From contig VXNM01000014.1 of the NCBI GenBank assembly GCA_009840545.1, positions 183,197 through 247,196 on the forward strand: 64,000 nucleotides of DNA, written 5' to 3'. A program made the translations under genes and the position numbers. Every line of letters starts with the position of its first letter. Position 1 is the stretch's first letter. The notes below the pieces were generated by a model that was not told the origin of the DNA, searched no databases, and saw nothing but the letters and a program-made list of their open reading frames with translations. The DNA is from Gammaproteobacteria bacterium (GTDB lineage Bacteria; Pseudomonadota; Gammaproteobacteria; Pseudomonadales; Azotimanducaceae). This document shows positions 573 to 21,054 of this stretch, one piece after another.

Positions 573-3500
573 CTAGTCTGTCGATACTCGGACATCGAAG
601 TAGTAGTAACGTCCGTAGTCGCGATGTGCATCCGAGAAGAATCCAAAGTAGCGATCAGCAAGCGGTGCGCGTTCTCCTGTCACATTGCGGACGCCCAAGC
701 GGAATCTTGTAGAGTTGAAGAAATACTTTGTTGTGAAGTCAAACGAGAGATTCCAAGTGTGAAAGTCTGGAATGACGTACTGAATACCTGTAGGAGTTCC
801 GTCATCCAATGTGAGCGAATCCTGAAAAAACTCACCTAGACGAGTGCCCGATAACGAAGCAGCGTAAGGAAAGTGCTTCCAACGAACCAATAGAGTTTCC
901 TTGTACTGCTGGTTGCCATCTTGTCCAATCAGATCCGCGAAGCCAGCAACCGGAATGTCGGCGGGCAGTACGCCTTGCGCCTTCGCATCGACCAATCTTG
1001 CCGATGGTCCTCCTGGCTCTTGATTGAAGTCAAGCAGTTGCGACCGAAGGTACTTTACGCTAAATTCTCCAAACTTGAACTCGAAGTCGCCGTACAGTGC
1101 AACATCAAAACCCTCAAGCGAGCGAGTATCCAAATTTGCGTAGTTATCTACGATGTTGTGGATCGCCCCTGCGGGACAAATACCTGCGGCCCGATAAACA
1201 TCAGCTTCGTCTTCCGCAATCTCCTCCAAGCGGTTGACCGCCGGATTTGTTTGTAGGTCCTGGCAGTTATCACCGCCATGCTCAAGCCTTAACAGCAAGT
1301 CGTAGACTGTGTGATTTTCTTCACCAAGCAAGCCGATAGTGTCTTCTTTGACAATGGACCAATAATCCAAAGTCAAAGTGATCCCATCCAAAGGATCGAC
1401 GGCCATTCCTACGGTCCAATTCTCGCTCTGCTCGGAAACTAGGTCTTTGCTTCCCTGAGCTACTCGTTGAGTGGAATTGACGCAATCCAAAATGTTCTGT
1501 TCTGGATCTCCTCCGTTTTCGGCGGCGTATGTGCATGCCCAATCCGTACGAGTGTTCTGTCTTGCAACGATCTCTTCGTTGATCGTCACCAAGTTCGGAG
1601 CGCGAAAAGCTTGTGACCATGATGCTCTGAGTTGAACTTCATCTATAGGACGCCAGCCAAACGCAACTCGACCAACAATTGTGTCGTCCACATCGGAGAA
1701 GTTTTCGTAACGCAATGCAACCAATGAGTCAATCCTGTTAGCGATTGGAATCTGGAGTTCACCAAACAGGGAATACACGGTACGGTCACCACTGTTGTCT
1801 GGAGTCGGGCTCGAATTAACGACGTCGGAGACAAACGGGTAGGTATCTCCTTGAAAATCGGTAAAGACGATCGTGCCATCCAGTCGGGGGTCCCGATCGT
1901 CTTCAAAGGACTCATTGCGGATCTCGGTGCCGACCAATGCCCCAACGGGACCAGCCGGCAGCTGGTAAACATCTGGACTTGATACTTTGAAGTCAATAAG
2001 AAAGAGCTCCATTTCGTTGTCGCGCGAGACATCGACCAGAGCACGTTCGATATTGCTGTTTTTTCCGCCGCTAAAAGGGTTATAGGCCGCTGGAGTGGGA
2101 TCAAAAAGCGCCTCTGTGATGAGATTGTTTGAAACACGATTGCGAGTAAGATCTTCCCGAGTCGCCACGGAATACACAACAGCTGCTTCCCAGTCATAGT
2201 CGTAATTGGTACCTGCCAGTCCACCCAATAACCTGAACACATTCCCATCGTTCTCAACAATTCGCGGGTATTCCGCGTAGCGATAGTTATCGATCCAAAG
2301 TTCGAGACCTTCACATGGAACGTCGGGAATCATGCTGTCTGGCAATCGATTGGGTGATCCGCAAGGTCCGAAGGGGTTGTAGTAGTTCTCAGGCCCGACT
2401 CTTAGTTTCACTGACGAAAAGGCATAAGAGGGATGTCTTGACAACACTGATTCGGAAGAATAGTAGAGAAACTCGGAAAAACCGTCGATGCCGTTCTGAA
2501 ACGTGTGATTGGCGAACACAAACAGACCAAGCCTGTCCAGATCAGAGGAGAGATCCCTAAATTCGTTGAGGTTGTAGCGGTAGACACCCTGTCCGTCTAC
2601 GGCACCACATGTTGTGTCATTCAACTGCCATTGGCATCTTTCGTCACCCAATGGATAAGTCTCAAACTCTCCGCTGCCATCGGTGATGCCTCTCAATCCA
2701 AACCGTCTTACACTTCGAACGATGTCAAATTGCCCATAGGGAGAGTGCGCGCTTAGATTGCGAAATTCTGTCCTTGTACGCCAAGGAGAGTCCTCCGGCA
2801 AGAATGGTCTCAGGTCTCCTTCCGCCCATTTTGGATCTTCAGAAGAATGAATGTTGTCTCGGGTAAGAAAGTCAAACATCACTCCAATGTGGGTCGCTCC
2901 ATCGTTGAAATAGTCTCCCCACTCGCCGTTGAATTCATAGGTCTGACGTCCTACAAGGTGATAGGTGTAGGTTCTAAGTCGACCCGTGAACCCTTCAATA
3001 TCCTTCTCTAGTACTGTGTTTACGACTCCTGCAACGGCATCGGCACCGTATACCGCAGCCGCTCCGTCTCTCAGAACTTCAACTCGATCTACACCAAACA
3101 GCGGAATCGTATTGGAATTTACAGTATTCACTGGTACGAAGCTCCCGCCGACTTCCTCGGTTTGGTAGCTCGCCGCGTTTACCATTCTTCGGCCATTTAG
3201 CAGAACCAGAGTGTTTCCTGTGCCTAGGTTCCGAAGATTGAATGCACCGACATCCCCGCGTGCGGCATTTACACCGCCACTAATGTTCTCTTCTTCGTTG
3301 AAGAAATTTTGTCCTTGTTCGGGGAGCATTTCCAGCAGTTCGTCCCCTGAAGAAATCCCCAAGACGTCGATATCATCGCTCTCGAAGACGGAAACTGGAA
3401 GTATTCCGGTGACATCGGCTCCTTTCATTTGGCTACCGACAACAACCATCTCTTCGATGGTCTCCGCTTCTTCGTCTTCGGCGTCTTCCGAGGTTGTCTG

Positions 3501-3593
3501 TTGCTGACCGTGGAGCGTCAGACAGCCGAACACCAGCCCAACGGCAAGCACGGACGCCCAGATTCGCAGGTGCACATTTCGATAAGTGTTCAA
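573..3593 (-). CDS. TonB-dependent outer-membrane receptor
   Basis: Outer-membrane beta-barrel transporter that takes up a large or scarce substrate with energy from TonB. From the chosen TTG start (GGAGCTAAGAAA just upstream) the protein is about 1006 residues. A signal peptide around residues 7-30 (WASVLAVGLVFGCLTLHGQ) is followed by a TonB-box-like EEMVVVGSQ. The plug domain follows, with FNLRNLGTGNTLVLLNGRR and VDRVEVLRDGAAAVYGADAV, then the long barrel, which ends in aromatic-rich strands (GRYYYFDVRVSTD). The frame stays open up to an ATG at 3734, but that would put 47 extra residues before the signal peptide and overlap the upstream gene. The plug motifs resemble the RagA/Oar and 'iron complex' receptors of Gammaproteobacteria that often serve organic substrates. 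Its place after the peptidase/lyase fusion and GMC oxidoreductase suggests uptake of the same compound. Substrate unknown. Confidence 0.93.
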   Translation of the reverse strand: MNTYRNVHLRIWASVLAVGLVFGCLTLHGQQQTTSEDAEDEEAETIEEMVVVGSQMKGADVTGILPVSVFESDDIDVLGISSGDELLEMLPEQGQNFFNEEENISGGVNAARGDVGAFNLRNLGTGNTLVLLNGRRMVNAASYQTEEVGGSFVPVNTVNSNTIPLFGVDRVEVLRDGAAAVYGADAVAGVVNTVLEKDIEGFTGRLRTYTYHLVGRQTYEFNGEWGDYFNDGATHIGVMFDFLTRDNIHSSEDPKWAEGDLRPFLPEDSPWRTRTEFRNLSAHSPYGQFDIVRSVRRFGLRGITDGSGEFETYPLGDERCQWQLNDTTCGAVDGQGVYRYNLNEFRDLSSDLDRLGLFVFANHTFQNGIDGFSEFLYYSSESVLSRHPSYAFSSVKLRVGPENYYNPFGPCGSPNRLPDSMIPDVPCEGLELWIDNYRYAEYPRIVENDGNVFRLLGGLAGTNYDYDWEAAVVYSVATREDLTRNRVSNNLITEALFDPTPAAYNPFSGGKNSNIERALVDVSRDNEMELFLIDFKVSSPDVYQLPAGPVGALVGTEIRNESFEDDRDPRLDGTIVFTDFQGDTYPFVSDVVNSSPTPDNSGDRTVYSLFGELQIPIANRIDSLVALRYENFSDVDDTIVGRVAFGWRPIDEVQLRASWSQAFRAPNLVTINEEIVARQNTRTDWACTYAAENGGDPEQNILDCVNSTQRVAQGSKDLVSEQSENWTVGMAVDPLDGITLTLDYWSIVKEDTIGLLGEENHTVYDLLLRLEHGGDNCQDLQTNPAVNRLEEIAEDEADVYRAAGICPAGAIHNIVDNYANLDTRSLEGFDVALYGDFEFKFGEFSVKYLRSQLLDFNQEPGGPSARLVDAKAQGVLPADIPVAGFADLIGQDGNQQYKETLLVRWKHFPYAASLSGTRLGEFFQDSLTLDDGTPTGIQYVIPDFHTWNLSFDFTTKYFFNSTRFRLGVRNVTGERAPLADRYFGFFSDAHRDYGRYYYFDVRVSTD

Positions 3594-3672
3594 TTTCTTA
3601 GCTCCGTAGCAAGAGGAAGGTGCCAATGGGTTGAGGAGTTGCTTGACGGTTTTGCGCTCGTACGAGTTGACC

Positions 3673-6378
3673 TCAATCTGGATCCACTCCAGAGGAAGAC
3701 GCACAGACCTCGTAGAATTCGTCCTGCAAAGCAATGTCTGCGCTAATTATCGCAGACTGTCGCGTCTTGTACCACCAAAGATCGTCCGCAAGTCGTTCGT
3801 ATCCCGCGTCTACCATTCGTTTGGTCTCTTCTAGCTGCGGCCCACCAAGACCTTTGCGGCTAAAGACCATGTTTGTGCTATCTATTGCGTCTCGGATTTT
3901 TGCGATTTCAACGGGTAACTCTTCATCAAAAATTGACCTGTAAGAATCTTCTATGTCTGTGTCTGTAAGAGATGCCAATCGAAGGTTTCTAGATCTAGCA
4001 TGCTCCACTAATGCAGCCGCAAAGTCCTGCGCCTCTCGAAACGACAGTTCGGAGTTCTTCACAAGTAATTCCGCCACTTGCGACGAAGTTGCGAAACTCC
4101 GTTCAATTGCAGACGATGCACGTTCTGGGTCAACGACCAAGCTCTCTAGCAATCCGAGAAATCGATCAAACATCAAGTCGGCCGCATCCGCAAGTCTAGA
4201 TACGTTGGAGGCCATCCGGTAGTCGTGCATTCCTGCGTCGACATTGTGACTGTTCATAGTTAATTGGTATGTCAATGCGAGAACTTGGTTGGCGGCAGTC
4301 CGCAAGCGATCCAAGTCTCGTGGATTTCGCTTTTGGGGCATTGAACTACTTGAGCTAACGCTTGACTCACCAAGGTAAATCCATGGTTGCGGGTCTCGTT
4401 GTTGACTGTGGATATTCGCCACTATTTGGTTGATGGTGAGAGCTGCATCGCCAAGAATGCTTGCGTATTCGTTCTTGTAATCCAACGTATCTACGAAATT
4501 CGCATCAAAACTGTTTTCCACCGGTTCATCGAAACCGAGGAGTTCAGCCAAACGCTTTCGATCAAGAAAAATTCCACTTGTGGTACCTGGACCGACACCA
4601 TAAGGACTTCTGTTGAGGCGGTCAAATCCTTCACGCAATCGAGCCGATGTTCGTGCCAAAGAAGCGGCATAGGCGAGTAGTTGATGTCCGAACGTTGTGG
4701 GTTGAGAGGGAACGCCGTGCGTATATGCAGGTACAACCGTCTGTAGATGAGACTCAGCCAAACCGAGCAGTTCTTTTCGATTCCGGTTTACTCGCATGTG
4801 AGTACTGATCCATCGGTCACGAGCCAGCATGCGTCGAACCGTTCCATGTAGGTCTTGCCGCGATCGACCGATATGAATATTGGAAATCTCCGATCCCGTA
4901 GCCAGAATGAGTCTTTGCTCCAGTTTCAAGTAGTCAGAGACTCTGAGAGACTCGTCTTGGTCCGAGCCAGCTAGGTCATTTAGAAGGGCATCAGCAAATG
5001 ACTCCCCTGACTCAGCGCTAATTAAGCTGTTTTCGACCGACGACACGAGAGTCGCCTTGTTTGCTTCAATTAGGAAGCAATAGAAATCCAAGCAGGGCAC
5101 ATCACGGAAAAAAGTGTAGCCGCAACTAGACTGCGGATCAGCTTTTGATTCGCTTGAATCCAGCTGAACAAACGTATCGACAAGTGCCTGAGCGAATACG
5201 ACCATTCGACTTGGAAGTACGTCTCTATCCGTGTTGTCGCCAGTTTCGAATGTAATTGCTGGCACTCCATATGCAGAATAGAAATAGTTCTTCGAAGTTC
5301 CGTTTTCACTCGTGGGTCGAGGTGCGATTTCATAACCAGCGGCAGTTCGATCGACCTGAGTAACGTGATTCTGCGCCACCACATTCTTGATCCATACCTC
5401 TGTGAAATTCGGCGGGTTTGTCGAATCGTCGGACTCTTGAATGTACAAGACATCACGATTGGTTGAATGGAAATCCAACATTAGCCTTAAACGGGATTGA
5501 GCTTCGGTAGAGTCCAATTTTCGGTGGACTGCCGCGGTTTCCGGTTGTGTGAAGATTCCCCAGTCCCGGTTCAGATCGGTGGACCCCAAGTTGTGTCTCC
5601 AGTGACCCAATACAACGCCATCCGGGTTAAGCAATGGCACGATCAGAAAGTTGTAGCGTTGAAAGAAACGGCACTTTGAAGTGAGCCCGTTCAAACATGC
5701 TTCGACTCGAATGGATGCCAATGCACGCATAAATTCTCGCATGGCGATGGTTCCCGGTACCTCCGGAGGATGCGCCCTACCCATAAGCAATACGGTTTTG
5801 GATGCCCGGGGATTGGTCTCTATGACAACAATGGGATGGCGAGCAATTGAATAGCCAATAGTCTCGGTTTCCCGCTGAGGCCACTCTCGTTCTAGTTCCT
5901 CATTCCATTGGTGATACCAGTCCAAATTGAGGTTTTCCTGAGCCGAGACATACAGCGAATCAGAGTCGATAGTCAGCGAGATATGGGCGGAACCTTTAGT
6001 ATCGACACTAATGTTTTGATTCGAGATTGGAGTCCAATTCACTCCGTCACTGCTCAGTTTCGGTAAGTACCGGTGTTGATAGCCGGATGGGTAGTTCAAG
6101 ACTACATCAAGCTCTAGAGGTGTGTCGCTCACGTGGCGTTCAATCTTGAACGCATACCAGGGACTAGGATTGATTGGCGGTCTGTCCTCTGGGGCTACTT
6201 CGCCGACCAAAGAGTTGTCGGTAGCTTTGCACGAGTTCAAACTTCCGCCCTGAAAGTCTATTTTGACCTCATAAAGACTCGATTCACAAAGAACGGAATT
6301 TCCATCTGCCGCGGCAGCTACAACGTATGCCACAGCAAAGACAAGCAGTAACACAAAACGACGGCAGTTCCCTTTCAC
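3673..6378 (-). CDS. Exported fusion: M14 zinc carboxypeptidase + argininosuccinate-lyase-like domain
   Basis: A single uninterrupted frame joins two enzymes. Numbering is from the GTG at 6378. Residues 6-25 form a signal peptide (FVLLLVFAVAYVVAAAA). Residues about 30-160 resemble the beta-rich N-domain of M14 peptidases. The M14 catalytic domain (about 175-405) has zinc ligands H203-x-x-E206 (HPPE) and H304 (LDFHST), substrate-binding N270-R271 (DLNRDW) and the catalytic Glu at E378 (ITFETGD). From about 450 to the end is a fumarase/aspartase-superfamily lyase closest to argininosuccinate lyase: GRSRQDLHGT, PAYTHGVPSQP with the conserved Thr-His, and the mobile serine loop SSSSSMPQKRNP (675-685), then SFREAQDFA. 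All key residues seem present in both halves. A longer start (ATG 6459) would overlap the GMC gene by 29 bases. It is upstream of the TonB receptor. Function is inferred: peptide trimming plus C-N bond elimination, probably periplasmic. Fusion is unusual to my knowledge. Confidence 0.85.
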   Translation of the reverse strand: MKGNCRRFVLLLVFAVAYVVAAAADGNSVLCESSLYEVKIDFQGGSLNSCKATDNSLVGEVAPEDRPPINPSPWYAFKIERHVSDTPLELDVVLNYPSGYQHRYLPKLSSDGVNWTPISNQNISVDTKGSAHISLTIDSDSLYVSAQENLNLDWYHQWNEELEREWPQRETETIGYSIARHPIVVIETNPRASKTVLLMGRAHPPEVPGTIAMREFMRALASIRVEACLNGLTSKCRFFQRYNFLIVPLLNPDGVVLGHWRHNLGSTDLNRDWGIFTQPETAAVHRKLDSTEAQSRLRLMLDFHSTNRDVLYIQESDDSTNPPNFTEVWIKNVVAQNHVTQVDRTAAGYEIAPRPTSENGTSKNYFYSAYGVPAITFETGDNTDRDVLPSRMVVFAQALVDTFVQLDSSESKADPQSSCGYTFFRDVPCLDFYCFLIEANKATLVSSVENSLISAESGESFADALLNDLAGSDQDESLRVSDYLKLEQRLILATGSEISNIHIGRSRQDLHGTVRRMLARDRWISTHMRVNRNRKELLGLAESHLQTVVPAYTHGVPSQPTTFGHQLLAYAASLARTSARLREGFDRLNRSPYGVGPGTTSGIFLDRKRLAELLGFDEPVENSFDANFVDTLDYKNEYASILGDAALTINQIVANIHSQQRDPQPWIYLGESSVSSSSSMPQKRNPRDLDRLRTAANQVLALTYQLTMNSHNVDAGMHDYRMASNVSRLADAADLMFDRFLGLLESLVVDPERASSAIERSFATSSQVAELLVKNSELSFREAQDFAAALVEHARSRNLRLASLTDTDIEDSYRSIFDEELPVEIAKIRDAIDSTNMVFSRKGLGGPQLEETKRMVDAGYERLADDLWWYKTRQSAIISADIALQDEFYEVCASSSGVDPD

Positions 6379-6430: not shown

Positions 6431-8038
6431 CTAGACGCTTGCAATACGGTTATCTTCAAGAATCATATTTGCGCCCTTCTGTCCAATCATGATGGCTGGA
6501 GCATTTGTGTTTCCTGAGACCAAGGTCGGCATGATGGATGCATCCACAACTCGCAGTCCATGCAGTCCTCGGACTCGTAGGCGCTCATCAACGACTGCTT
6601 GTTCATCGATCCCCATCTTGCACGTGCCCACGGGATGAAAGACGGTTGCGCCTGTCCTTCTACACCACTCGAGTATCTCCTCGTCCGAATTCACGTTTGG
6701 CCCTGGAAATATCTCGTGGTCGACATAGTTGGATAGAGGTTCGGCGGATCCCACTTGCCGCGCAATCTTCATCCCTCCAATCAAGGCATCACGATCGGTT
6801 GTCTCGCTCAGAAAGTTTGGGCGAATGGCTGGTGGGTCACTTGGATTTCGACTCTTGATGTGTACGCTTCCAGTACTTTCCGGTCGCAATTGACACACAG
6901 AAATGGTCATTCCAGGTTCTTGTTCCAATGCTCCCCTCTTCCCTCGAGCGTAGCTCGCGTGAGCCATATGAAACTGTACGTCTGGGTTTTCCATGTCGTC
7001 TCGAGTTTTCACGAAACCATGTGCGATTCCGGCGGTGTAGGTTAGTGCTCCCCGACGGAGCAATCCCCACTTGATCGATTCCAAAACAAGCCTCCATCCT
7101 CGAGTTTGTTCATTTAGCGAACCGACTCCTTTCAGTCTCCACGCTACCGAGCTTGAGTAGTGATCTCGTAAATTCTCACCCACACCGGAAAGTTCTTTGA
7201 CAACGGGAATGCCGTGCTCCTCCAAGATTTCGCGTTTTCCTATTCCTGACAGTTCCAAGATTTGTGGGCTTTGTATGGCGCCCGCACAGAGTATGATTTC
7301 GCGTCGACAAGTTGCTTCTTGCTCTTGTCCGTTTCGGACCCCATACCTTACGGCTACTGCTCTATCCTTATTTACCAAAACGGAATTCACCATGGCTCGT
7401 GTGGTGATTGTCAAGTTGCTTCGGCCCCTTATGGGGTCAATAAAGGCGCAAGTTGCACTATGTCTACGACCGTTTTTCTGAGTGACTTGGTAAATTCCAA
7501 ATCCTTCCTGCGATTCTCCGTTGTAGTCCACTGGTGTTGGATAGCCAAGATTTCCTCCCGCCTCTACATATGCCTCGAGGACCGGATGGGTTTCTGCCAT
7601 ATCTGCGACATTGAGTTCACCTCCACCGCCACGAAGCTCGTTCTCCCCACGTTCAAAGGATTCGCAAGCCTTGAAATCTGGCAACACCTCATCATAGGAC
7701 CAACCTCGATTGCCCAGTTGGGACCACAGGTCATAGTCCGCTGCTTGTCCTCGAACGTACAGCATTCCATTAATCGAGCTGGATCCGCCCATGACTTTTC
7801 CTCGAGGAATGGGAATTTCTCTATCTTTAGTTCCCGCTTCCGGCTCAGTCTTGAAGCACCAATTCAGGCTTGGCCGGTCAATCATGCGCCAGAATCCGAC
7901 TGGAATGTGAATGAGGAAGTTTGAGTCGCGACCTCCAGCCTCTAACAAGAGCACCGAGTTTGACTTATCTGCACTCAATCGGTTTGCAACGACGCAACCC
8001 GCCGACCCTGCCCCAATGACGATATAGTCGTACTTCAT
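6431..8038 (-). CDS. GMC-family FAD oxidoreductase (choline/alcohol dehydrogenase-like)
   Basis: Flavoenzyme of the glucose-methanol-choline family, which oxidises alcohols to aldehydes. At 535 residues it has normal length. The N-terminal Rossmann motif is YIVIGAGSAGCVVANRLS. The GMC signature 1 region contains PRGKVMGGSSSINGMLYVRG, and signature 2 is GAIQSPQILELSGIG. The C-terminal active-site block HPVGTCKMG followed by LRVVDASIMPTLVSGNTNAP contains the usual catalytic His and Asn. The start has a good ribosome-binding site (CAGGAGC). There is no signal peptide, so it should be cytoplasmic. It is the first gene of the minus-strand series that continues into the peptidase-lyase fusion and the TonB receptor. 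The natural alcohol is unknown; a choline dehydrogenase role is not supported by context. Confidence 0.93.
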   Translation of the reverse strand: MKYDYIVIGAGSAGCVVANRLSADKSNSVLLLEAGGRDSNFLIHIPVGFWRMIDRPSLNWCFKTEPEAGTKDREIPIPRGKVMGGSSSINGMLYVRGQAADYDLWSQLGNRGWSYDEVLPDFKACESFERGENELRGGGGELNVADMAETHPVLEAYVEAGGNLGYPTPVDYNGESQEGFGIYQVTQKNGRRHSATCAFIDPIRGRSNLTITTRAMVNSVLVNKDRAVAVRYGVRNGQEQEATCRREIILCAGAIQSPQILELSGIGKREILEEHGIPVVKELSGVGENLRDHYSSSVAWRLKGVGSLNEQTRGWRLVLESIKWGLLRRGALTYTAGIAHGFVKTRDDMENPDVQFHMAHASYARGKRGALEQEPGMTISVCQLRPESTGSVHIKSRNPSDPPAIRPNFLSETTDRDALIGGMKIARQVGSAEPLSNYVDHEIFPGPNVNSDEEILEWCRRTGATVFHPVGTCKMGIDEQAVVDERLRVRGLHGLRVVDASIMPTLVSGNTNAPAIMIGQKGANMILEDNRIASV

Positions 8039-8203: not shown

Positions 8204-9001
8204 ATGTCTGATTGGTTTTCTATTGAAGGAAAAGTTGCACTTGTAACGGGAGGCTCGAGAGGCATCGGAGAAATGATCGCTGCCGGTTTCCTGATGCACG
8301 GAGCGAAGGTCTATATAAGCTCGCGCAAAACGGATGTGTGCGATGCGACAGCTGCGCGACTTCAAGAAGAGTACGGTGGCGAGTGCATTTCTATTCCCGG
8401 CGACTTGAGCCAATTGCCAGGCATCGAAACGGTGGTCGGCCAGATAGCCGAACGCGAGTTGCAATTGGACATCTTGGTAAACAATGCAGGTGCGACCTGG
8501 GGTGCTCCGCTGGAGGAGTTTCCCGAAGTCGGCTGGGACAAAGTCATGGACACCAATGTCAAGGGAATATTCTTTCTTACTCAGAAGTGTTTGCCGCTGA
8601 TGCGGGTTGGTGCAACATCCGAAGATCCCGCTCGGGTCATCAACATTGGTTCCATCGACGGTATTCACACTCCGCGATTTGACAACTTCTCTTATGGGCC
8701 GTCGAAAGCGGCTGTCCACCATCTAACGCGCCAAATGGCTTCTCATCTCGTAAGCGAAAACATCATCGTTAACGCAATCGCACCGGGACCCTTCCCCAGC
8801 TGGATGCTGAGTGCTGGAGTGGGTTTCGGAGGTCAAGTCGAAGGAGCCGACTGGGAAAGCGTTGGAAAGGGAAATCCAAGGGGACGAGTAGGAACAATGG
8901 AAGACATCGCTGGTCTTGCGATCTTCCTCAGTTCAAGAGCCGGAGCGTTCACCGTAGGAGAAACGATTAGTTGCGATGGAGGTTCGGTAGCCTCAAGTTG
9001 A
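8204..9001 (+). CDS. Short-chain dehydrogenase/reductase
   Basis: NAD(P)-dependent classical SDR of 265 residues. The cofactor motif TGGSRGIG is near the N-terminus, with the structural NNAG motif about residue 94, catalytic Ser in NIGSIDG, the Tyr-x-x-x-Lys pair as YGPSK, and the C-terminal CDGGS loop typical of fabG-like enzymes. An Arg after the Gly-rich loop region (SSRKT) suggests NADP preference, which is inference. The start is fixed by GGAGGCTTGT directly before ATG. It is divergent from the GMC gene and convergent with the flotillin operon, so it is probably transcribed alone. Related proteins are often annotated as gluconate 5-dehydrogenase or rhamnolipid reductase homologues; I would not go beyond the family. 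Confidence 0.92.
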   Translation: MSDWFSIEGKVALVTGGSRGIGEMIAAGFLMHGAKVYISSRKTDVCDATAARLQEEYGGECISIPGDLSQLPGIETVVGQIAERELQLDILVNNAGATWGAPLEEFPEVGWDKVMDTNVKGIFFLTQKCLPLMRVGATSEDPARVINIGSIDGIHTPRFDNFSYGPSKAAVHHLTRQMASHLVSENIIVNAIAPGPFPSWMLSAGVGFGGQVEGADWESVGKGNPRGRVGTMEDIAGLAIFLSSRAGAFTVGETISCDGGSVASS

Positions 9002-13688: not shown

Positions 13689-15284
13689 ATGAATGTTTGT
13701 ACAGATATTGTCGAGATTCTTAAGAGTCACGGAGTAACCGTCGCGTTCGGTATTCCAGGTATACACAACATGCCAATTTACCGAGCGTTGCACGAGTGTG
13801 GAATTGAGATCTACACAGTCAGACACGAGCAGTGTGCATCCTTCATGGCAGATGGCTATGCACGCGTGTCAGGAATTCCAGCCCTTTGTGCCGTAATTGA
13901 CGGACCTGGATTCCTCAATGCTTCCACGGGAATAGTCCAAGCTAGATCGGACTCCGTCCCGATGGTCGTCTTGACCCCCTGTGGAAGTGAGGAATCACAA
14001 GGCAATCCTCACGAGCTTTGCGGTCAAGCCAACGTGTCACAACAGATTTGTAAAGCTAGTTTCAGAGTAAATCCAGCAACCAGCAGAAGCGATGTGGAAT
14101 CGTTTGTAGATCGAAATTTGCGTTTCGGCCGACCAGGACCCCTTCATATCGAAATCCCATTGTCGTTGTCGGAAGATCCGCTGAGGACACCAGAAAAGAG
14201 AAATCCTTTCAAAACCGATGACGAGATTGCGAGTCTGAGCAAAATAGATGGGGCTCGACAACTGTTAAACGCCTCGAAACAACCAATCATTGTTGCTGGT
14301 GGAGGCACGGTTGACGCTCAACCTGAAGTTCAGAAATTTGCGGAATGCATCGATGCTCCGGTTCTCAATACAGTCAATGGCAAAGGAATATTGCCACTAA
14401 TCCATCCTCTGAGAGTGGGCTTCAGTCCGTCAATACCGGAGATTGGTACCGAACTCAGTGAGTCAGACTTGACGATCGCAATTGGTACGGAGTTAAGCGA
14501 AATTGACTTCGACTTCTTCATGCAAGGCAATTCGCGGAAGTTCCGAAAACTGATTCGTCTAGACATTGACCCCAAACAGGTTTCCTGCAATGCAATCCCG
14601 GACGTGGCACTCGTAGGAGACTGCAAAGACTTGCTACCGCTCCTCACTTCAAGTCCGACAGCTCGGAATGGATCGGTGCGAGCAAGAGAAATGCAAAGAA
14701 AAGCTCGAGAATCACCCTATGTCTCAAATGAAATGCACGAGTTTCTCGCCACTCTTCGTCAGCATTCTGATGTTTTGGTAGGAGACTCCACTCAGCCCAC
14801 GTACTACGCAACCTGGCTATACGAACCGCGTAGCGTAAGACAGTACTTTCACAGCGTTACTGGATTTGGTACGCTCGGATACAGCATTCCGGCAGCAATC
14901 GGAGCGAAAATCGCCAACGGAACCAACCGTGTAACCGCACTCACTGGAGATGGTGGTTCACACTTCACAATTCCTGAGATCCAATCCGCTACGCAATTTG
15001 GTCTAGGCATACCGTTCGTGATTTGGAACAACTTGTGCTACGGTGAAATCAACAAGGCCATGTGTGCCCAAACTTCCGACACGTGGTACGAATCTCCTAT
15101 TCCACCCGACTTTCGTGCTTTGGCCAAAGCTTATGGTGCCCACTACTGTAGGCCAACCAGGTTTTCTCAATTGTCGGATTGCTTGGAGGAATCGCATTCG
15201 AGGAATTACCCAACGGTAATCGAAGTGAGCGAGGAAGAGTTTCCAGAGGTTCATCTGACCATGAACTGGTTCGTTCAAGAGTAA
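13689..15284 (+). CDS. Thiamine-diphosphate enzyme of the acetolactate synthase / 2-oxoacid decarboxylase family
   Basis: ThDP-dependent enzyme of 531 residues with the three classical domains. The N-terminal PYR domain starts with GVTVAFGIPGIHNMPIYRAL and has the catalytic Glu in YTVRHEQCASFMADGYARVS. The central domain (about 190-325) is followed by the C-terminal PP domain, with the ThDP/Mg motif beginning TGDGGSHFTIPEIQSATQ and NNLCYGEIN. The start region 'FGIPG' and 'RHEQ' resemble 5-guanidino-2-oxopentanoate decarboxylase (AruI) and sulfoacetaldehyde- or acetolactate-type enzymes, more than anabolic IlvB. There is no small regulatory subunit next to it, which also argues against branched-chain synthesis. 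It is followed after 30 bases by a sulfatase, probably in one operon. The substrate is unknown. Confidence 0.9.
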   Translation: MNVCTDIVEILKSHGVTVAFGIPGIHNMPIYRALHECGIEIYTVRHEQCASFMADGYARVSGIPALCAVIDGPGFLNASTGIVQARSDSVPMVVLTPCGSEESQGNPHELCGQANVSQQICKASFRVNPATSRSDVESFVDRNLRFGRPGPLHIEIPLSLSEDPLRTPEKRNPFKTDDEIASLSKIDGARQLLNASKQPIIVAGGGTVDAQPEVQKFAECIDAPVLNTVNGKGILPLIHPLRVGFSPSIPEIGTELSESDLTIAIGTELSEIDFDFFMQGNSRKFRKLIRLDIDPKQVSCNAIPDVALVGDCKDLLPLLTSSPTARNGSVRAREMQRKARESPYVSNEMHEFLATLRQHSDVLVGDSTQPTYYATWLYEPRSVRQYFHSVTGFGTLGYSIPAAIGAKIANGTNRVTALTGDGGSHFTIPEIQSATQFGLGIPFVIWNNLCYGEINKAMCAQTSDTWYESPIPPDFRALAKAYGAHYCRPTRFSQLSDCLEESHSRNYPTVIEVSEEEFPEVHLTMNWFVQE

Positions 15285-19338: not shown

Positions 19339-21054
19339 CTAGGCAGAACCTCTCGAAGCGAGCGGTCCTCTTAACAACCGCCCGGATTGGGAGCCAGTGT
19401 GTTCGTTGGAGCTCAGGAAGACTTCGCCATTGACAATGGTTGTCTTTATTCCATGTGCGGTTTGCTTAAGGCGTTTTGCACCCGAAGGTAGATCACGTTC
19501 GACGGTCGGCATATCCGGTCCAATCGTATCCGGATCAAAAATAACAACATCTGCCGCGTAGCCTGGTTTTAGCATTCCTCGATCACGCAATCCCCAGCGC
19601 CTTGCAGTTTCTGAGGTAACCATGGAAACAGCTTGTTCAATGGTTAGTTCCTCGCGTTCCCGAACCCAATGGCTGAAGATGTGAGTCTGCAGGGAACTGT
19701 CCATGATCTGGGACACGTGTGCACCCGAATCCGAAAAAGTAACGACAGACTTAGGATGTTTCATCATTTCGATGACATCGTCCTCGTTCTCGTTGGCAAT
19801 AGGCTGTCGAAACATACACTTGAAGTCGCTTTCCAATGCCATGTCTATCATTAGTTCAACTGGACTTACACCTCGCTCTGCCGCGAGTTCGTCCATCCGT
19901 TTGGTGCCCCCGGAAGGTTCATCCATCACAAAGACCCAGTGCCAATTTGGCGGTCGCACAATGACTGACCTTTCCTTGTGTCTCTCACTTTCACTACTCG
20001 CTGACTCAACGAGTTTGGCTCGAACATCTGCACGCCTTAGTCTTGCCTTTTGTTCCTCTAGAGGCAATTGACGAATATCTCTCCACACGTTCCAGCTATC
20101 GAAGGGAGTATTGAATTCAAACGAATAGATGACATTGAGAGCTCTAGAATGCACTTGAGCAAACATTGTCCCGCCAGCCTCTTCGACTTCCTCCAGCAAA
20201 TTGAAGAAGCTTCGCCAACGATCAGGAATATGCCGGGAACTGAACATTCCCCAAGTCACCGGGCACTTCAAGTCCACAGCCAGCTCTTTGATTCGATCCT
20301 GATAATCCAATAATCGATCAAGATCGCGTCCCGTGTCTTCGGCTGCTATCTCGAAAATTCCTGCACCCGTCGCTCTCATTTGGCCGACTAAGTACTTGAC
20401 CTCGTCCCAATTCGCAATGCGACTGGATACGGGCTTGTGGTCCGACGTCTGATGATTTCGGCTCCGAGAAGTCGAGAATCCAATTGCTCCGGCCGTCATA
20501 GCTTCCTGAACTAACTCACCCATTCGTTTGAGCTCGCCCTCGGAGGGTGAATCGGTGAATGCACGATCTCCCATCACATATGTTCTTAATGCAGAATGGC
20601 CTAGGTAACCTGCGTAGTTGATTCCCTTCGGTGTTGAATCGACTGCGTTGAGGTACTCGGGAAAGCTCTCCCAATTCCAATCGATTCCTTCCAACATAGC
20701 TCCCCGAGAAATGTCTTCGGCACGTTCGAGATTGCGAAAGACATGGTCTGCTTCGGATTCCTTGCAAGGAGCTAACGTGAAACCGCAGTTTCCCATCACA
20801 ACACTGGTGACACCGTGGTAGCACGAACATGATCCGAGATCGTCCCAGAACACCTGAGCATCCATGTGCGTGTGCCCATCGACAAATCCTGGAGCTACGA
20901 TGTGCCCTTCGGCATCTATGATTTGCCTTGCTCGTCCGCAGCTGTCTCCGACTTCAACAATTCGCCCATTAGAGATCGAAACATTGGCGTGTATACGTTC
21001 ATTACCCGAGCCGTCAATTACGGTTCCGTTTTGAATCACAATGTCACAGGGCAT
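19339..21054 (-). CDS. D-aminoacylase / N-acyl-D-amino-acid deacylase family amidohydrolase
   Basis: Metal-dependent amidohydrolase of 571 residues. The N-terminal beta domain starts with CDIVIQNGTVIDGSGN. The metal motif is APGFVDGHTHMDAQVFWD, and the Cys ligand typical of D-aminoacylases is in TSVVMGNCGFTLAP. A later metal or catalytic Asp is in VTFSDSGAHVSQ. The C-terminal beta domain carries GMLKPGYAADVVIFDPDTIG. The family removes acyl groups from N-acyl-D-amino acids, though many long members like this one have unknown substrates. No signal peptide. It is convergent with arsC and begins a 620-base intergenic region. The long insertion between the barrel strands (about 270-370) is normal for the larger members. 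Confidence 0.88.
   Translation of the reverse strand: MPCDIVIQNGTVIDGSGNERIHANVSISNGRIVEVGDSCGRARQIIDAEGHIVAPGFVDGHTHMDAQVFWDDLGSCSCYHGVTSVVMGNCGFTLAPCKESEADHVFRNLERAEDISRGAMLEGIDWNWESFPEYLNAVDSTPKGINYAGYLGHSALRTYVMGDRAFTDSPSEGELKRMGELVQEAMTAGAIGFSTSRSRNHQTSDHKPVSSRIANWDEVKYLVGQMRATGAGIFEIAAEDTGRDLDRLLDYQDRIKELAVDLKCPVTWGMFSSRHIPDRWRSFFNLLEEVEEAGGTMFAQVHSRALNVIYSFEFNTPFDSWNVWRDIRQLPLEEQKARLRRADVRAKLVESASSESERHKERSVIVRPPNWHWVFVMDEPSGGTKRMDELAAERGVSPVELMIDMALESDFKCMFRQPIANENEDDVIEMMKHPKSVVTFSDSGAHVSQIMDSSLQTHIFSHWVREREELTIEQAVSMVTSETARRWGLRDRGMLKPGYAADVVIFDPDTIGPDMPTVERDLPSGAKRLKQTAHGIKTTIVNGEVFLSSNEHTGSQSGRLLRGPLASRGSA

What the first reader, a model, noticed from the sequence alone, without database searches (positions are those of the whole stretch)
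3673..6378. Exported fusion of an M14 carboxypeptidase with an argininosuccinate-lyase-like enzyme
One uninterrupted frame carries a signal peptide, a complete M14 zinc site (HPPE, LDFHST, NRD, FETG) and a complete fumarase-superfamily lyase with Thr-His and the SSSSSMPQKRNP loop. Lyases of this superfamily are normally cytoplasmic and not fused to peptidases. The set TonB receptor + fusion + GMC oxidoreductase could take up and dismantle an unusual peptide or N-(dicarboxyalkyl) amino acid: the peptidase frees a C-terminal residue and the lyase eliminates across its C-N bond to release fumarate-like acid.
Basis: partly seen in the sequence, partly recalled or inferred. Interest (0 to 1): 0.8.

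Follow-up and report, generated by a model that had tools for sequence, protein, structure and literature searches.

The report
Exported peptidase fused to fumarate-type lyase
A bacterium and its close relatives appear to export one protein made of two enzymes, a zinc peptidase that probably removes acidic end residues and a lyase that probably splits off fumarate, encoded beside one particular outer-membrane uptake receptor; what it digests is not known.

Summary
The fusion is real. It lies on the minus strand: one open frame of 901 residues with a signal-peptide-like start, a CCP-like M14 carboxypeptidase and a fumarase-superfamily lyase. It is no assembly join: copies spanning both halves occur in 18 of 18 genomes of the genus and 20 of 206 of the family, and both halves show purifying selection. 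The constant partner is a TonB-dependent receptor, within 2.5 kb in 17 of 17 fusion loci checked and 37 of 44 related loci. The GMC oxidoreductase is not constant. The peptidase keeps its catalytic residues, plus a lysine at the specificity position, in 47 of 47 distinct copies, suggesting acidic C-terminal residues. The lyase fails the tests for ArgH and EDDS lyase; it groups with stand-alone exported lyases that share its substrate-site motifs. In relatives the same slot holds a separate exported lyase or an Amidohydro_3-family amidohydrolase, fused or adjacent. Best reading: a two-headed periplasmic enzyme that trims, then deblocks, an acidic N-substituted oligomer brought in by the receptor. 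Substrate, location and activity are untested; the AlphaFold model is only moderate.

The parts
3673..6378 (-). Fusion gene, 901 codons from GTG 6378 (longest ORF from TTG 6459)
   Evidence: homologues spanning both halves
6307..6378 (-). Signal-peptide-like N-terminus (residues 1-24)
   Evidence: sequence and hydropathy; no SignalP run
5929..6303 (-). N-terminal domain as in cytosolic-carboxypeptidase-like M14 enzymes (about residues 26-150); Cys31 and Cys50 in 46 of 47 copies, a gap in the other
   Evidence: profile match of A2 from position 30 to bacterial CCP structures; Pepdidase_M14_N hits only in relatives
5227..5913 (-). M14 catalytic domain (Pfam stretch, residues 156-384); zinc ligands H203, E206, H304; R261, N270, R271; general base E378
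   Evidence: all seven kept in 47 of 47 distinct copies; roles by established M14 knowledge
5290..5292 (-). [quoted passage not shown]
   Evidence: 47 of 47; role of residue 255 from PMC9925722, passages; the alignment to CPA itself is by motif and spacing, from recall of the CPA sequence
5089..5178 (-). Junction between the two enzymes (residues 401-430)
   Evidence: domain limits and alignment A1
3694..5088 (-). Lyase, residues 431-895, exported ASL-like clade
4717..4722 (-). Thr553-His554 of the lyase
   Evidence: T in 26 of 26 copies, H in 21 and N in 5
4318..4356 (-). Signature loop SSSSSMPQKRNPR (residues 675-687)
4216..4233 (-). GMHDYR (716-721), the clade motif; at this place the E. 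coli enzyme has YNKDMQEDKE and EDDS lyase YQYSAAR
573..3734 (-). TonB-dependent receptor, next gene downstream, same strand; constant partner (start codon uncertain)
6431..8038 (-). GMC oxidoreductase (choline-dehydrogenase-like), next gene upstream; a local, not a conserved, neighbour

Best explanation
The protein is a two-headed periplasmic degradation enzyme that works with a particular TonB-dependent receptor. The receptor brings in an acidic, N-substituted oligopeptide-like compound. The CCP-like M14 head removes acidic C-terminal residues, its S1' pocket lined by Lys363. The lyase head then removes the N-substituent by beta-elimination, releasing fumarate (or a close analogue) and the free amine or amide. 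In relatives the same job of deblocking would be done by a hydrolase, an Amidohydro_3-family enzyme (by recall the family of N-acyl-D-amino-acid deacylases; no call names it so), fused or adjacent in the same slot. Shown: architecture, conservation, pairing with the receptor, intact catalytic residues, shared clade motifs. Inferred: periplasmic location, acidic specificity, fumarate release, order of steps. Unknown: the substrate.
For: Both halves in 18 of 18 genus genomes. Receptor within 2.5 kb in 17 of 17 fusion loci and 37 of 44 loci in all, although the window genome shows no other long match to that receptor (three further matches at E <= 1e-20, each over about 200 residues). Catalytic residues and K363 in 47 of 47 M14 copies; Arg255 is given as the cause of acidic specificity in carboxypeptidase O (PMC9925722, passages). 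Lyase closest to EDDS lyase in sequence (3e-40) and fold (6.5e-20). Arg687 in 21 of 26 copies where EDDS lyase has Asp290 fits an anionic leaving part (residue list from PMC12363623, passage). The slot is swapped: M14 + exported PurB-type lyase + receptor in L054; M14-amidohydrolase fusions in L058 and L063, whose second halves match the adjacent amidohydrolases of L062 and L078 at 43-54%; stand-alone signal-bearing lyase 2.8 kb from the same receptor in L059. GGT, GltS, PGA_cap and D-amino-acid-dehydrogenase-like neighbours in outer relatives point to acidic and perhaps D-amino-acid oligomers.
Against: No substrate or activity is shown. GltS, seen beside two outer relatives, is absent from 18 of 18 genomes of the genus, so the glutamate theme may not carry over. 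Position 678, aligned with EDDS-lyase Ser281 (catalytic base by recall), is Thr in 8 of 26 copies. The AlphaFold model is weak (mean pLDDT 63.6, pTM 0.41; active-site loops under 50). K363 aligns with Cys or Ser, not a basic residue, in the four bacterial CCP structures. Four of 44 loci (L060, L061, L063, L080) show no such receptor at all; two of these, G406 and G409, have M14 genes that branch inside the fusion clade but no lyase beside them. The amidohydrolases of the swapped slot score below their NCBIfam cut-off (PRK09061), so 'deblocking' rests on recall.
Confidence: 0.45

Rival explanations
1. Metallophore handling: the receptor imports an EDDS- or aspergillomarasmine-like aminopolycarboxylate chelator, and the lyase breaks its C-N bond so that the metal is released in the periplasm; the peptidase trims attached residues.
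For: Nearest solved relative of the lyase is EDDS lyase, an enzyme used to make N-substituted aspartates including toxin A, a precursor of aspergillomarasmine A (PMC10792612, start of abstract in the listing). Weak receptor matches are to siderophore and vitamin receptors.
Against: Of six contact residues listed for EDDS lyase four are changed in the window protein (N113 to Q508, Q159 to H554, D290 to R687, Y320 to M717). The lyase tree puts EDDS lyase with ArgH, outside the exported clade (long branches warned). No metal-transport or siderophore genes were recognised beside the fusion loci, judged by eye from the ORF lists. The receptor scores are all below the family cut-offs.
Confidence: 0.18
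2. Scavenging of poly-gamma-glutamate or gamma-glutamyl / D-glutamyl oligomers, with the lyase acting on some aspartyl or modified unit of the same polymer.
For: Neighbours in outer relatives: GltS (L057, L082, above cut-off), gamma-glutamyltransferase (L057; L082 and L083), PGA_cap proteins (L057, L062; L080), a D-amino-acid-dehydrogenase-like gene (L078, 344.9 bits against a cut-off of 383). A gamma-glutamyltransferase is somewhere in 16 of 18 genus genomes, but also in 8 of 14 control genomes.
Against: GltS in 0 of 18 genus genomes. None of these genes was recognised by eye beside a fusion locus in the stretches listed. Elimination needs an activated C-H that glutamate itself lacks (established chemistry).
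Confidence: 0.17
3. The lyase half has lost or changed its chemistry and serves as a binding or oligomerisation module; only the peptidase is active.
For: Ser to Thr at the aligned base position in 8 of 26 copies; low-confidence active-site loops in the model.
Against: R505, S506, Q508, D509, T553, S677, M680, K683, N685, G716, M717 and D719 are invariant in 26 of 26 copies. pN of the lyase half is lower than or within 0.002 of that of the peptidase half in 5 of 5 comparisons.
Confidence: 0.12
4. A mis-targeted or duplicated argininosuccinate lyase of arginine synthesis.
For: argH is the top NCBIfam model (4.1e-49).
Against: Score 167.8 against a cut-off of 279.5. The genome has its own argH of 460 aa on another contig. 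The ArgH motifs RSRND, NPD and YNxDxQEDKE are replaced. Signal-peptide-like start.
Confidence: 0.03

Closest known systems
EDDS lyase of Chelativorans sp. BNC1 (PDB 6g3d-6g3i, 6rx8)
   Same: Same superfamily, aligned from 439 to 891 of the window protein; signature loop, Arg112 and Asn288 kept
   Different: Window protein has Q for N113, H for Q159, R for D290, M for Y320, a two-residue insert after NSFDA, a signal-peptide-like start and an M14 partner
Argininosuccinate lyase (ArgH, TIGR00838)
   Same: Fold, Thr-His, MPQK loop
   Different: Scores below the ArgH cut-off; ArgH's RSRND, NPD and YNxDxQEDKE segments replaced; exported by its start
Stand-alone exported lyases on plasmids of Agrobacterium, Paracoccus, Comamonadaceae, Cupriavidus, Caballeronia, Pseudoroseomonas (L096-L101), annotated as argininosuccinate lyase or lyase family protein, or not at all
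   Same: Signal-peptide-like start (weakest in L097), RSxQD, GMxD motif, same side of the lyase tree
   Different: No peptidase; Thr-Asn instead of Thr-His, NPG instead of NPR; about 32% identity; no TonB receptor annotated in the five annotated regions read; L101 carries an in-frame stop near its end
Bacterial cytosolic-carboxypeptidase-like M14 enzymes (3l2n, 4a37, 4b6z, 3k2k)
   Same: N-terminal domain plus catalytic domain, same zinc-site motifs
   Different: HPPE instead of HPGE, invariant Lys at the 255 position, signal-peptide-like start, fused lyase
Amidohydro_3-family amidohydrolases (PF07969) fused to the same M14 in L058 and L063
   Same: Occupy the same C-terminal slot behind the same peptidase
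   Different: Amidohydrolase instead of lyase; the label N-acyl-D-amino-acid deacylase is recalled

Membership tests
Peptidase family M14 | Pfam PF00246 above gathering score; HxxE...H zinc ligands, Arg127, Asn144-Arg145, Glu270 | tested here: met
   65.5 bits vs 21.6; all seven residues in 47 of 47 distinct copies
CCP-like M14 (M14D) | N-terminal beta domain in front of the catalytic domain | tested here: inconclusive
   Profile A2 matches bacterial CCP structures over both domains; among the M14 proteins scanned the Pfam N-domain model passes its cut-off only in L017, and it is not listed for the window protein
Fumarase/aspartase superfamily | PF00206 and the SSxMPxKxN loop | tested here: met
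   78.5 bits vs 27; S677, M680, K683, N685 in 26 of 26; S or T at 678
Argininosuccinate lyase (ArgH) | TIGR00838 equivalog cut-off | tested here: not met
   167.8 vs 279.5 bits
Argininosuccinate lyase (ArgH) | ArgH substrate segments RSRND, NPD, YNxDxQEDKE (role of the last recalled) | tested here: not met
   RSRQD, NPR, GMHDYR instead
EDDS lyase | Substrate-contact residues R112, N113, Q159, N288, D290, Y320 | tested here: not met
   Only R112 and N288 are kept in the window protein
EDDS lyase | Activity on (S,S)-EDDS | not testable with these tools
   needs purified protein
Exported ASL-like lyase clade (this report) | Own signal-peptide-like start or fusion to an exported partner; RSxQD and GMxD; groups together against cytoplasmic ASL/EDDS lyases | tested here: met
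   Motifs 26 of 26; split 87/92, not fully supported
Periplasmic protein | Cleavable signal peptide | tested here: inconclusive
   Hydropathy and make-up only; conserved cysteines in A1; no SignalP, no fractionation

The most novel reading that the evidence does not exclude
A first periplasmic enzyme that dismantles peptides by alternating hydrolysis and beta-elimination: the peptidase exposes a terminal aspartyl unit and the lyase removes it as fumarate, leaving an amide or amine, as adenylosuccinate lyase does to the amide-linked aspartate of SAICAR (established chemistry). It would be one of several interchangeable 'deblocking' modules attached to a receptor-peptidase core.
Probability: 0.12. 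Interest if true: 0.85.

Novelty: new variant of a known kind. Interest (0 to 1): 0.6.

Why it matters
Two known enzyme kinds are joined in a way that no title or abstract start listed by my paper searches describes (several lists were capped, e.g. 10 of 790), and by their start they work outside the cytoplasm. It makes three things testable: the substrate of an exported lyase clade that annotations take for argininosuccinate lyase (and one paper, PMC11533796, passages seen, discusses periplasmic proteins so named as arginine-synthesis enzymes); a receptor-peptidase uptake core with swappable second enzymes; and a possible route by which these bacteria, some of whose MAG names point to sponges and corals (recalled, names), draw carbon and nitrogen from modified peptides or aminopolycarboxylates.

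Tried and rejected
Assembly join or chance ORF: rejected. ArgH of arginine synthesis: rejected. GMC oxidoreductase as part of the system: rejected as a general partner. Glutamate import by GltS in this genus: tested and not found, 0 of 18. Structure prediction of the whole protein gave only a moderate model, which supports the lyase fold by Foldseek (50 of 741 matches shown, no M14 structure among them) but says nothing reliable about the active sites; I did not use the second job because the permitted alignment would be no deeper. Plasmid search with the peptidase half: no match. Class-wide search with the lyase half: besides the window genome 4 of 369 genomes matched, at E 4e-39 to 5e-37, and all four proteins have the ArgH motifs. 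S-(2-succino)cysteine as substrate was considered (2-succinocysteine lyases are recalled); the 15 of 463 papers listed held no such enzyme paper that I recognised, so it stays an untested candidate.

Limits and dropped rows. Genome searches score only a few candidates per genome (2, 4), so their counts are lower bounds. The M14 count (47) is what remained of 88 tblastn rows spanning at least 300 query residues after removing contained duplicates. The lyase count (26: 20 fusions, the G430 lyase, 5 plasmid lyases) is what remained of 49 rows at E <= 1e-60 after the same step; L098 is not in it. The 44 loci are one per genome, chosen by me from those fetched; the window itself is not among them, and L004-L007 and L009 stand for genomes whose G handles I did not add. 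The odds of the best explanation were lowered from 0.48 to 0.45 on re-reading, because the deacylase label of the alternative second enzyme comes from recall and not from a call.
Full report
Observation. Pfam finds Peptidase_M14, Lyase_1 and ASL_C2 in that order, each above its curated score. The start of the protein reads as a signal peptide (hydropathy). The next gene downstream on the same strand is a TonB-dependent receptor, the one upstream a GMC oxidoreductase.

Not an artefact. A scan of one genome per species found 8 loci with the fusion at 51-71% identity in Gammaproteobacteria MAGs. The whole-genome searches found both halves in 18 of 18 genomes of the genus (one copy is cut short near a contig end). 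Of 206 family genomes, 36 matched at E <= 1e-60: 20 with both halves, 15 with the peptidase half only, 1 with the lyase half only. In the order 13 of 390 matched, 5 of them with both halves. In the class sample (369 genomes, the window's own included) the peptidase half was found in 5 other genomes; the lyase half matched 4 others, all with ArgH motifs. These searches score few candidates per genome, so the counts are lower bounds. Nonsynonymous change is low and synonymous change near or beyond saturation in both halves, in 5 comparisons.

The peptidase. A profile of 15 M14 members matches bacterial cytosolic-carboxypeptidase-like structures over both their domains (3l2n, 4a37, 4b6z, 3k2k; 1e-26 to 2e-23). 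In 47 of 47 distinct copies the equivalents of the zinc ligands, Arg127, Asn144-Arg145 and Glu270 are present, and the residue fifteen before the catalytic Glu, which matches bovine CPA residue 255 by spacing, is Lys (the CPA sequence is recalled). A basic residue there is given as the cause of carboxypeptidase O's preference for acidic C-terminal residues (PMC9925722, passages seen). The bacterial CCP structures have Cys or Ser at this place, so this is a mark of the present family and the specificity is an inference.

The lyase. Sequence search of the PDB puts EDDS lyase first (3e-40), before E. coli ArgH (4e-29). Foldseek on the AlphaFold model gives the same order, though the model is moderate (mean pLDDT 63.6, pTM 0.41). 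The ArgH model scores 167.8 against a cut-off of 279.5, and the genome has a separate ArgH. Of the EDDS-lyase contact residues named in PMC12363623 (passage seen), R112 and N288 are kept; N113, Q159, D290 and Y320 are Q508, H554, R687 and M717 here. Q508 and M717 are in 26 of 26 copies, H554 and R687 in 21 of 26. An Arg where EDDS lyase has Asp suggests an anionic leaving part (inference).

An exported clade. Of 269 plasmid records with a match, the first 13 listed hold relatives 31-34% identical over nearly the whole half, annotated as argininosuccinate lyase or lyase family protein where annotated at all. The six of these that I translated (L096-L101) have signal-peptide-like starts before the match, weakest in L097. 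They share RSxQD and GMxD with the fusions. In a tree of 30 rows the fusions, the stand-alone lyase of G430 and these plasmid lyases lie on one side, and ArgH, EDDS lyase and the A. vitis protein on the other (87/92 for the first, 96/91 for the second; long branches are warned of). A proteomics paper lists three 'argininosuccinate lyases' as expressed, periplasmic, putative Tat substrates of Achromobacter xylosoxidans and discusses them as arginine-synthesis enzymes (PMC11533796, passages seen); I could not compare sequences.

The partner and the slot. In 44 loci, one per genome, the same receptor family lies within 2.5 kb in 37, on the same strand in 35 of these; for fusions 17 of 17. Of the other seven, three have it at 2.6-2.8 kb (L059, L078, L079) and four show none (L060, L061, L063, L080). 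The window genome has no second long match to that receptor, so the pairing is not explained by its abundance there. The GMC gene was seen in 1 of those 17 fusion loci besides the window (L003 starts at the fusion and cannot tell). Behind the peptidase the second enzyme varies: a lyase fused (20 family genomes); a separate exported PurB-type lyase in L054 followed by the receptor; an Amidohydro_3-family amidohydrolase fused in L058 (scanned as L022) and L063, or adjacent in L062 and L078 and, by eye, in L079 and L083. The fused and adjacent amidohydrolases compared (4) are one family, 43-54% identical. That they are N-acyl-D-amino-acid deacylases is my recall of the family; the NCBIfam model they match is only 'amidohydrolase family protein' and below cut-off. 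The M14 tree needs two changes for the lyase fusion and two for the amidohydrolase fusion. G430 has a signal-bearing lyase, no M14 match at E <= 1e-60, and the same receptor 2.8 kb away.

Theme of the neighbours. Outer relatives carry GltS (L057, L082, above cut-off), gamma-glutamyltransferase (L057, L082, L083), PGA_cap proteins (L057, L062, L080), D-amino-acid-dehydrogenase-like genes (L078, below its NCBIfam cut-off; L059 a DAO-family oxidoreductase by Pfam; L079 and L080 by eye) and LysR regulators. This points to acidic or D-amino-acid oligomers. Against it, GltS is in 0 of 18 genomes of the genus, and I recognised none of these genes beside a fusion.

Mechanism. The best-supported reading is trimming plus deblocking in the periplasm: acid-specific carboxypeptidase, then beta-elimination of an N-substituent as fumarate, on a compound imported by the receptor. 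Architecture, conservation, receptor pairing and catalytic residues are shown. Location, specificity, reaction and order are inferred; the substrate is unknown. Rivals are metallophore handling, poly-gamma-glutamate scavenging, an inactive lyase half (Thr in 8 of 26 copies at the aligned base position), and a stray ArgH.

Verdict. Real, conserved, and more general than the finding says; a new variant of known kinds rather than a new kind. Interest 0.6, limited by the unknown substrate.

Noticed in passing
L058:615-3302 (G368) and L063:7948-10587 (G576): The same M14 peptidase is fused at its C-terminus to an Amidohydro_3-family amidohydrolase instead of a lyase.
   Followed up: partly
L054:303-6216 (G262): M14 peptidase, separate signal-bearing PurB/XcbD-like lyase and TonB receptor in a row on one strand: a split version of the set with a lyase from another branch of the superfamily.
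   Followed up: partly
L096:6920-8419 and L097-L101: Stand-alone lyases on plasmids, annotated as argininosuccinate lyase or lyase family protein or not at all, with signal-peptide-like starts and Thr-Asn in place of Thr-His.
   Followed up: partly
L078:235-1056, L052:5452-6225, L053:10375-11181, L055:10431-11276, L081:7802-8608: Similar-looking proteins with signal-like starts (FVGNS motif, by eye) recur beside the M14/receptor pair in five loci; the one tested (L078) hits DUF4886.
   Followed up: no
L004:6533-7813 and L008:6481-7779: Protein of about 430 residues with a signal-like start just upstream of the fusion in some relatives; the L008 copy has no Pfam match.
   Followed up: no
window 19342-21054 (-): Amidohydrolase without an evident signal peptide, 24-33% identical in pieces to the amidohydrolases that take the lyase's place in relatives.
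   Followed up: partly
window 8204-9001 (+) and 13689-15284 (+): SDR gene and a thiamine-diphosphate enzyme near the 5-guanidino-2-oxopentanoate decarboxylase model (467 bits, cut-off 500); an SDR (91% identical) and a similar-looking thiamine-type enzyme (by eye) lie near the fusion in G315 too (L047).
   Followed up: no
L060:3246-4460 (G409) and L061:8841-10256 (G406): M14 genes that branch inside the fusion clade but have no lyase and no receptor of this family nearby, perhaps losses.
   Followed up: no
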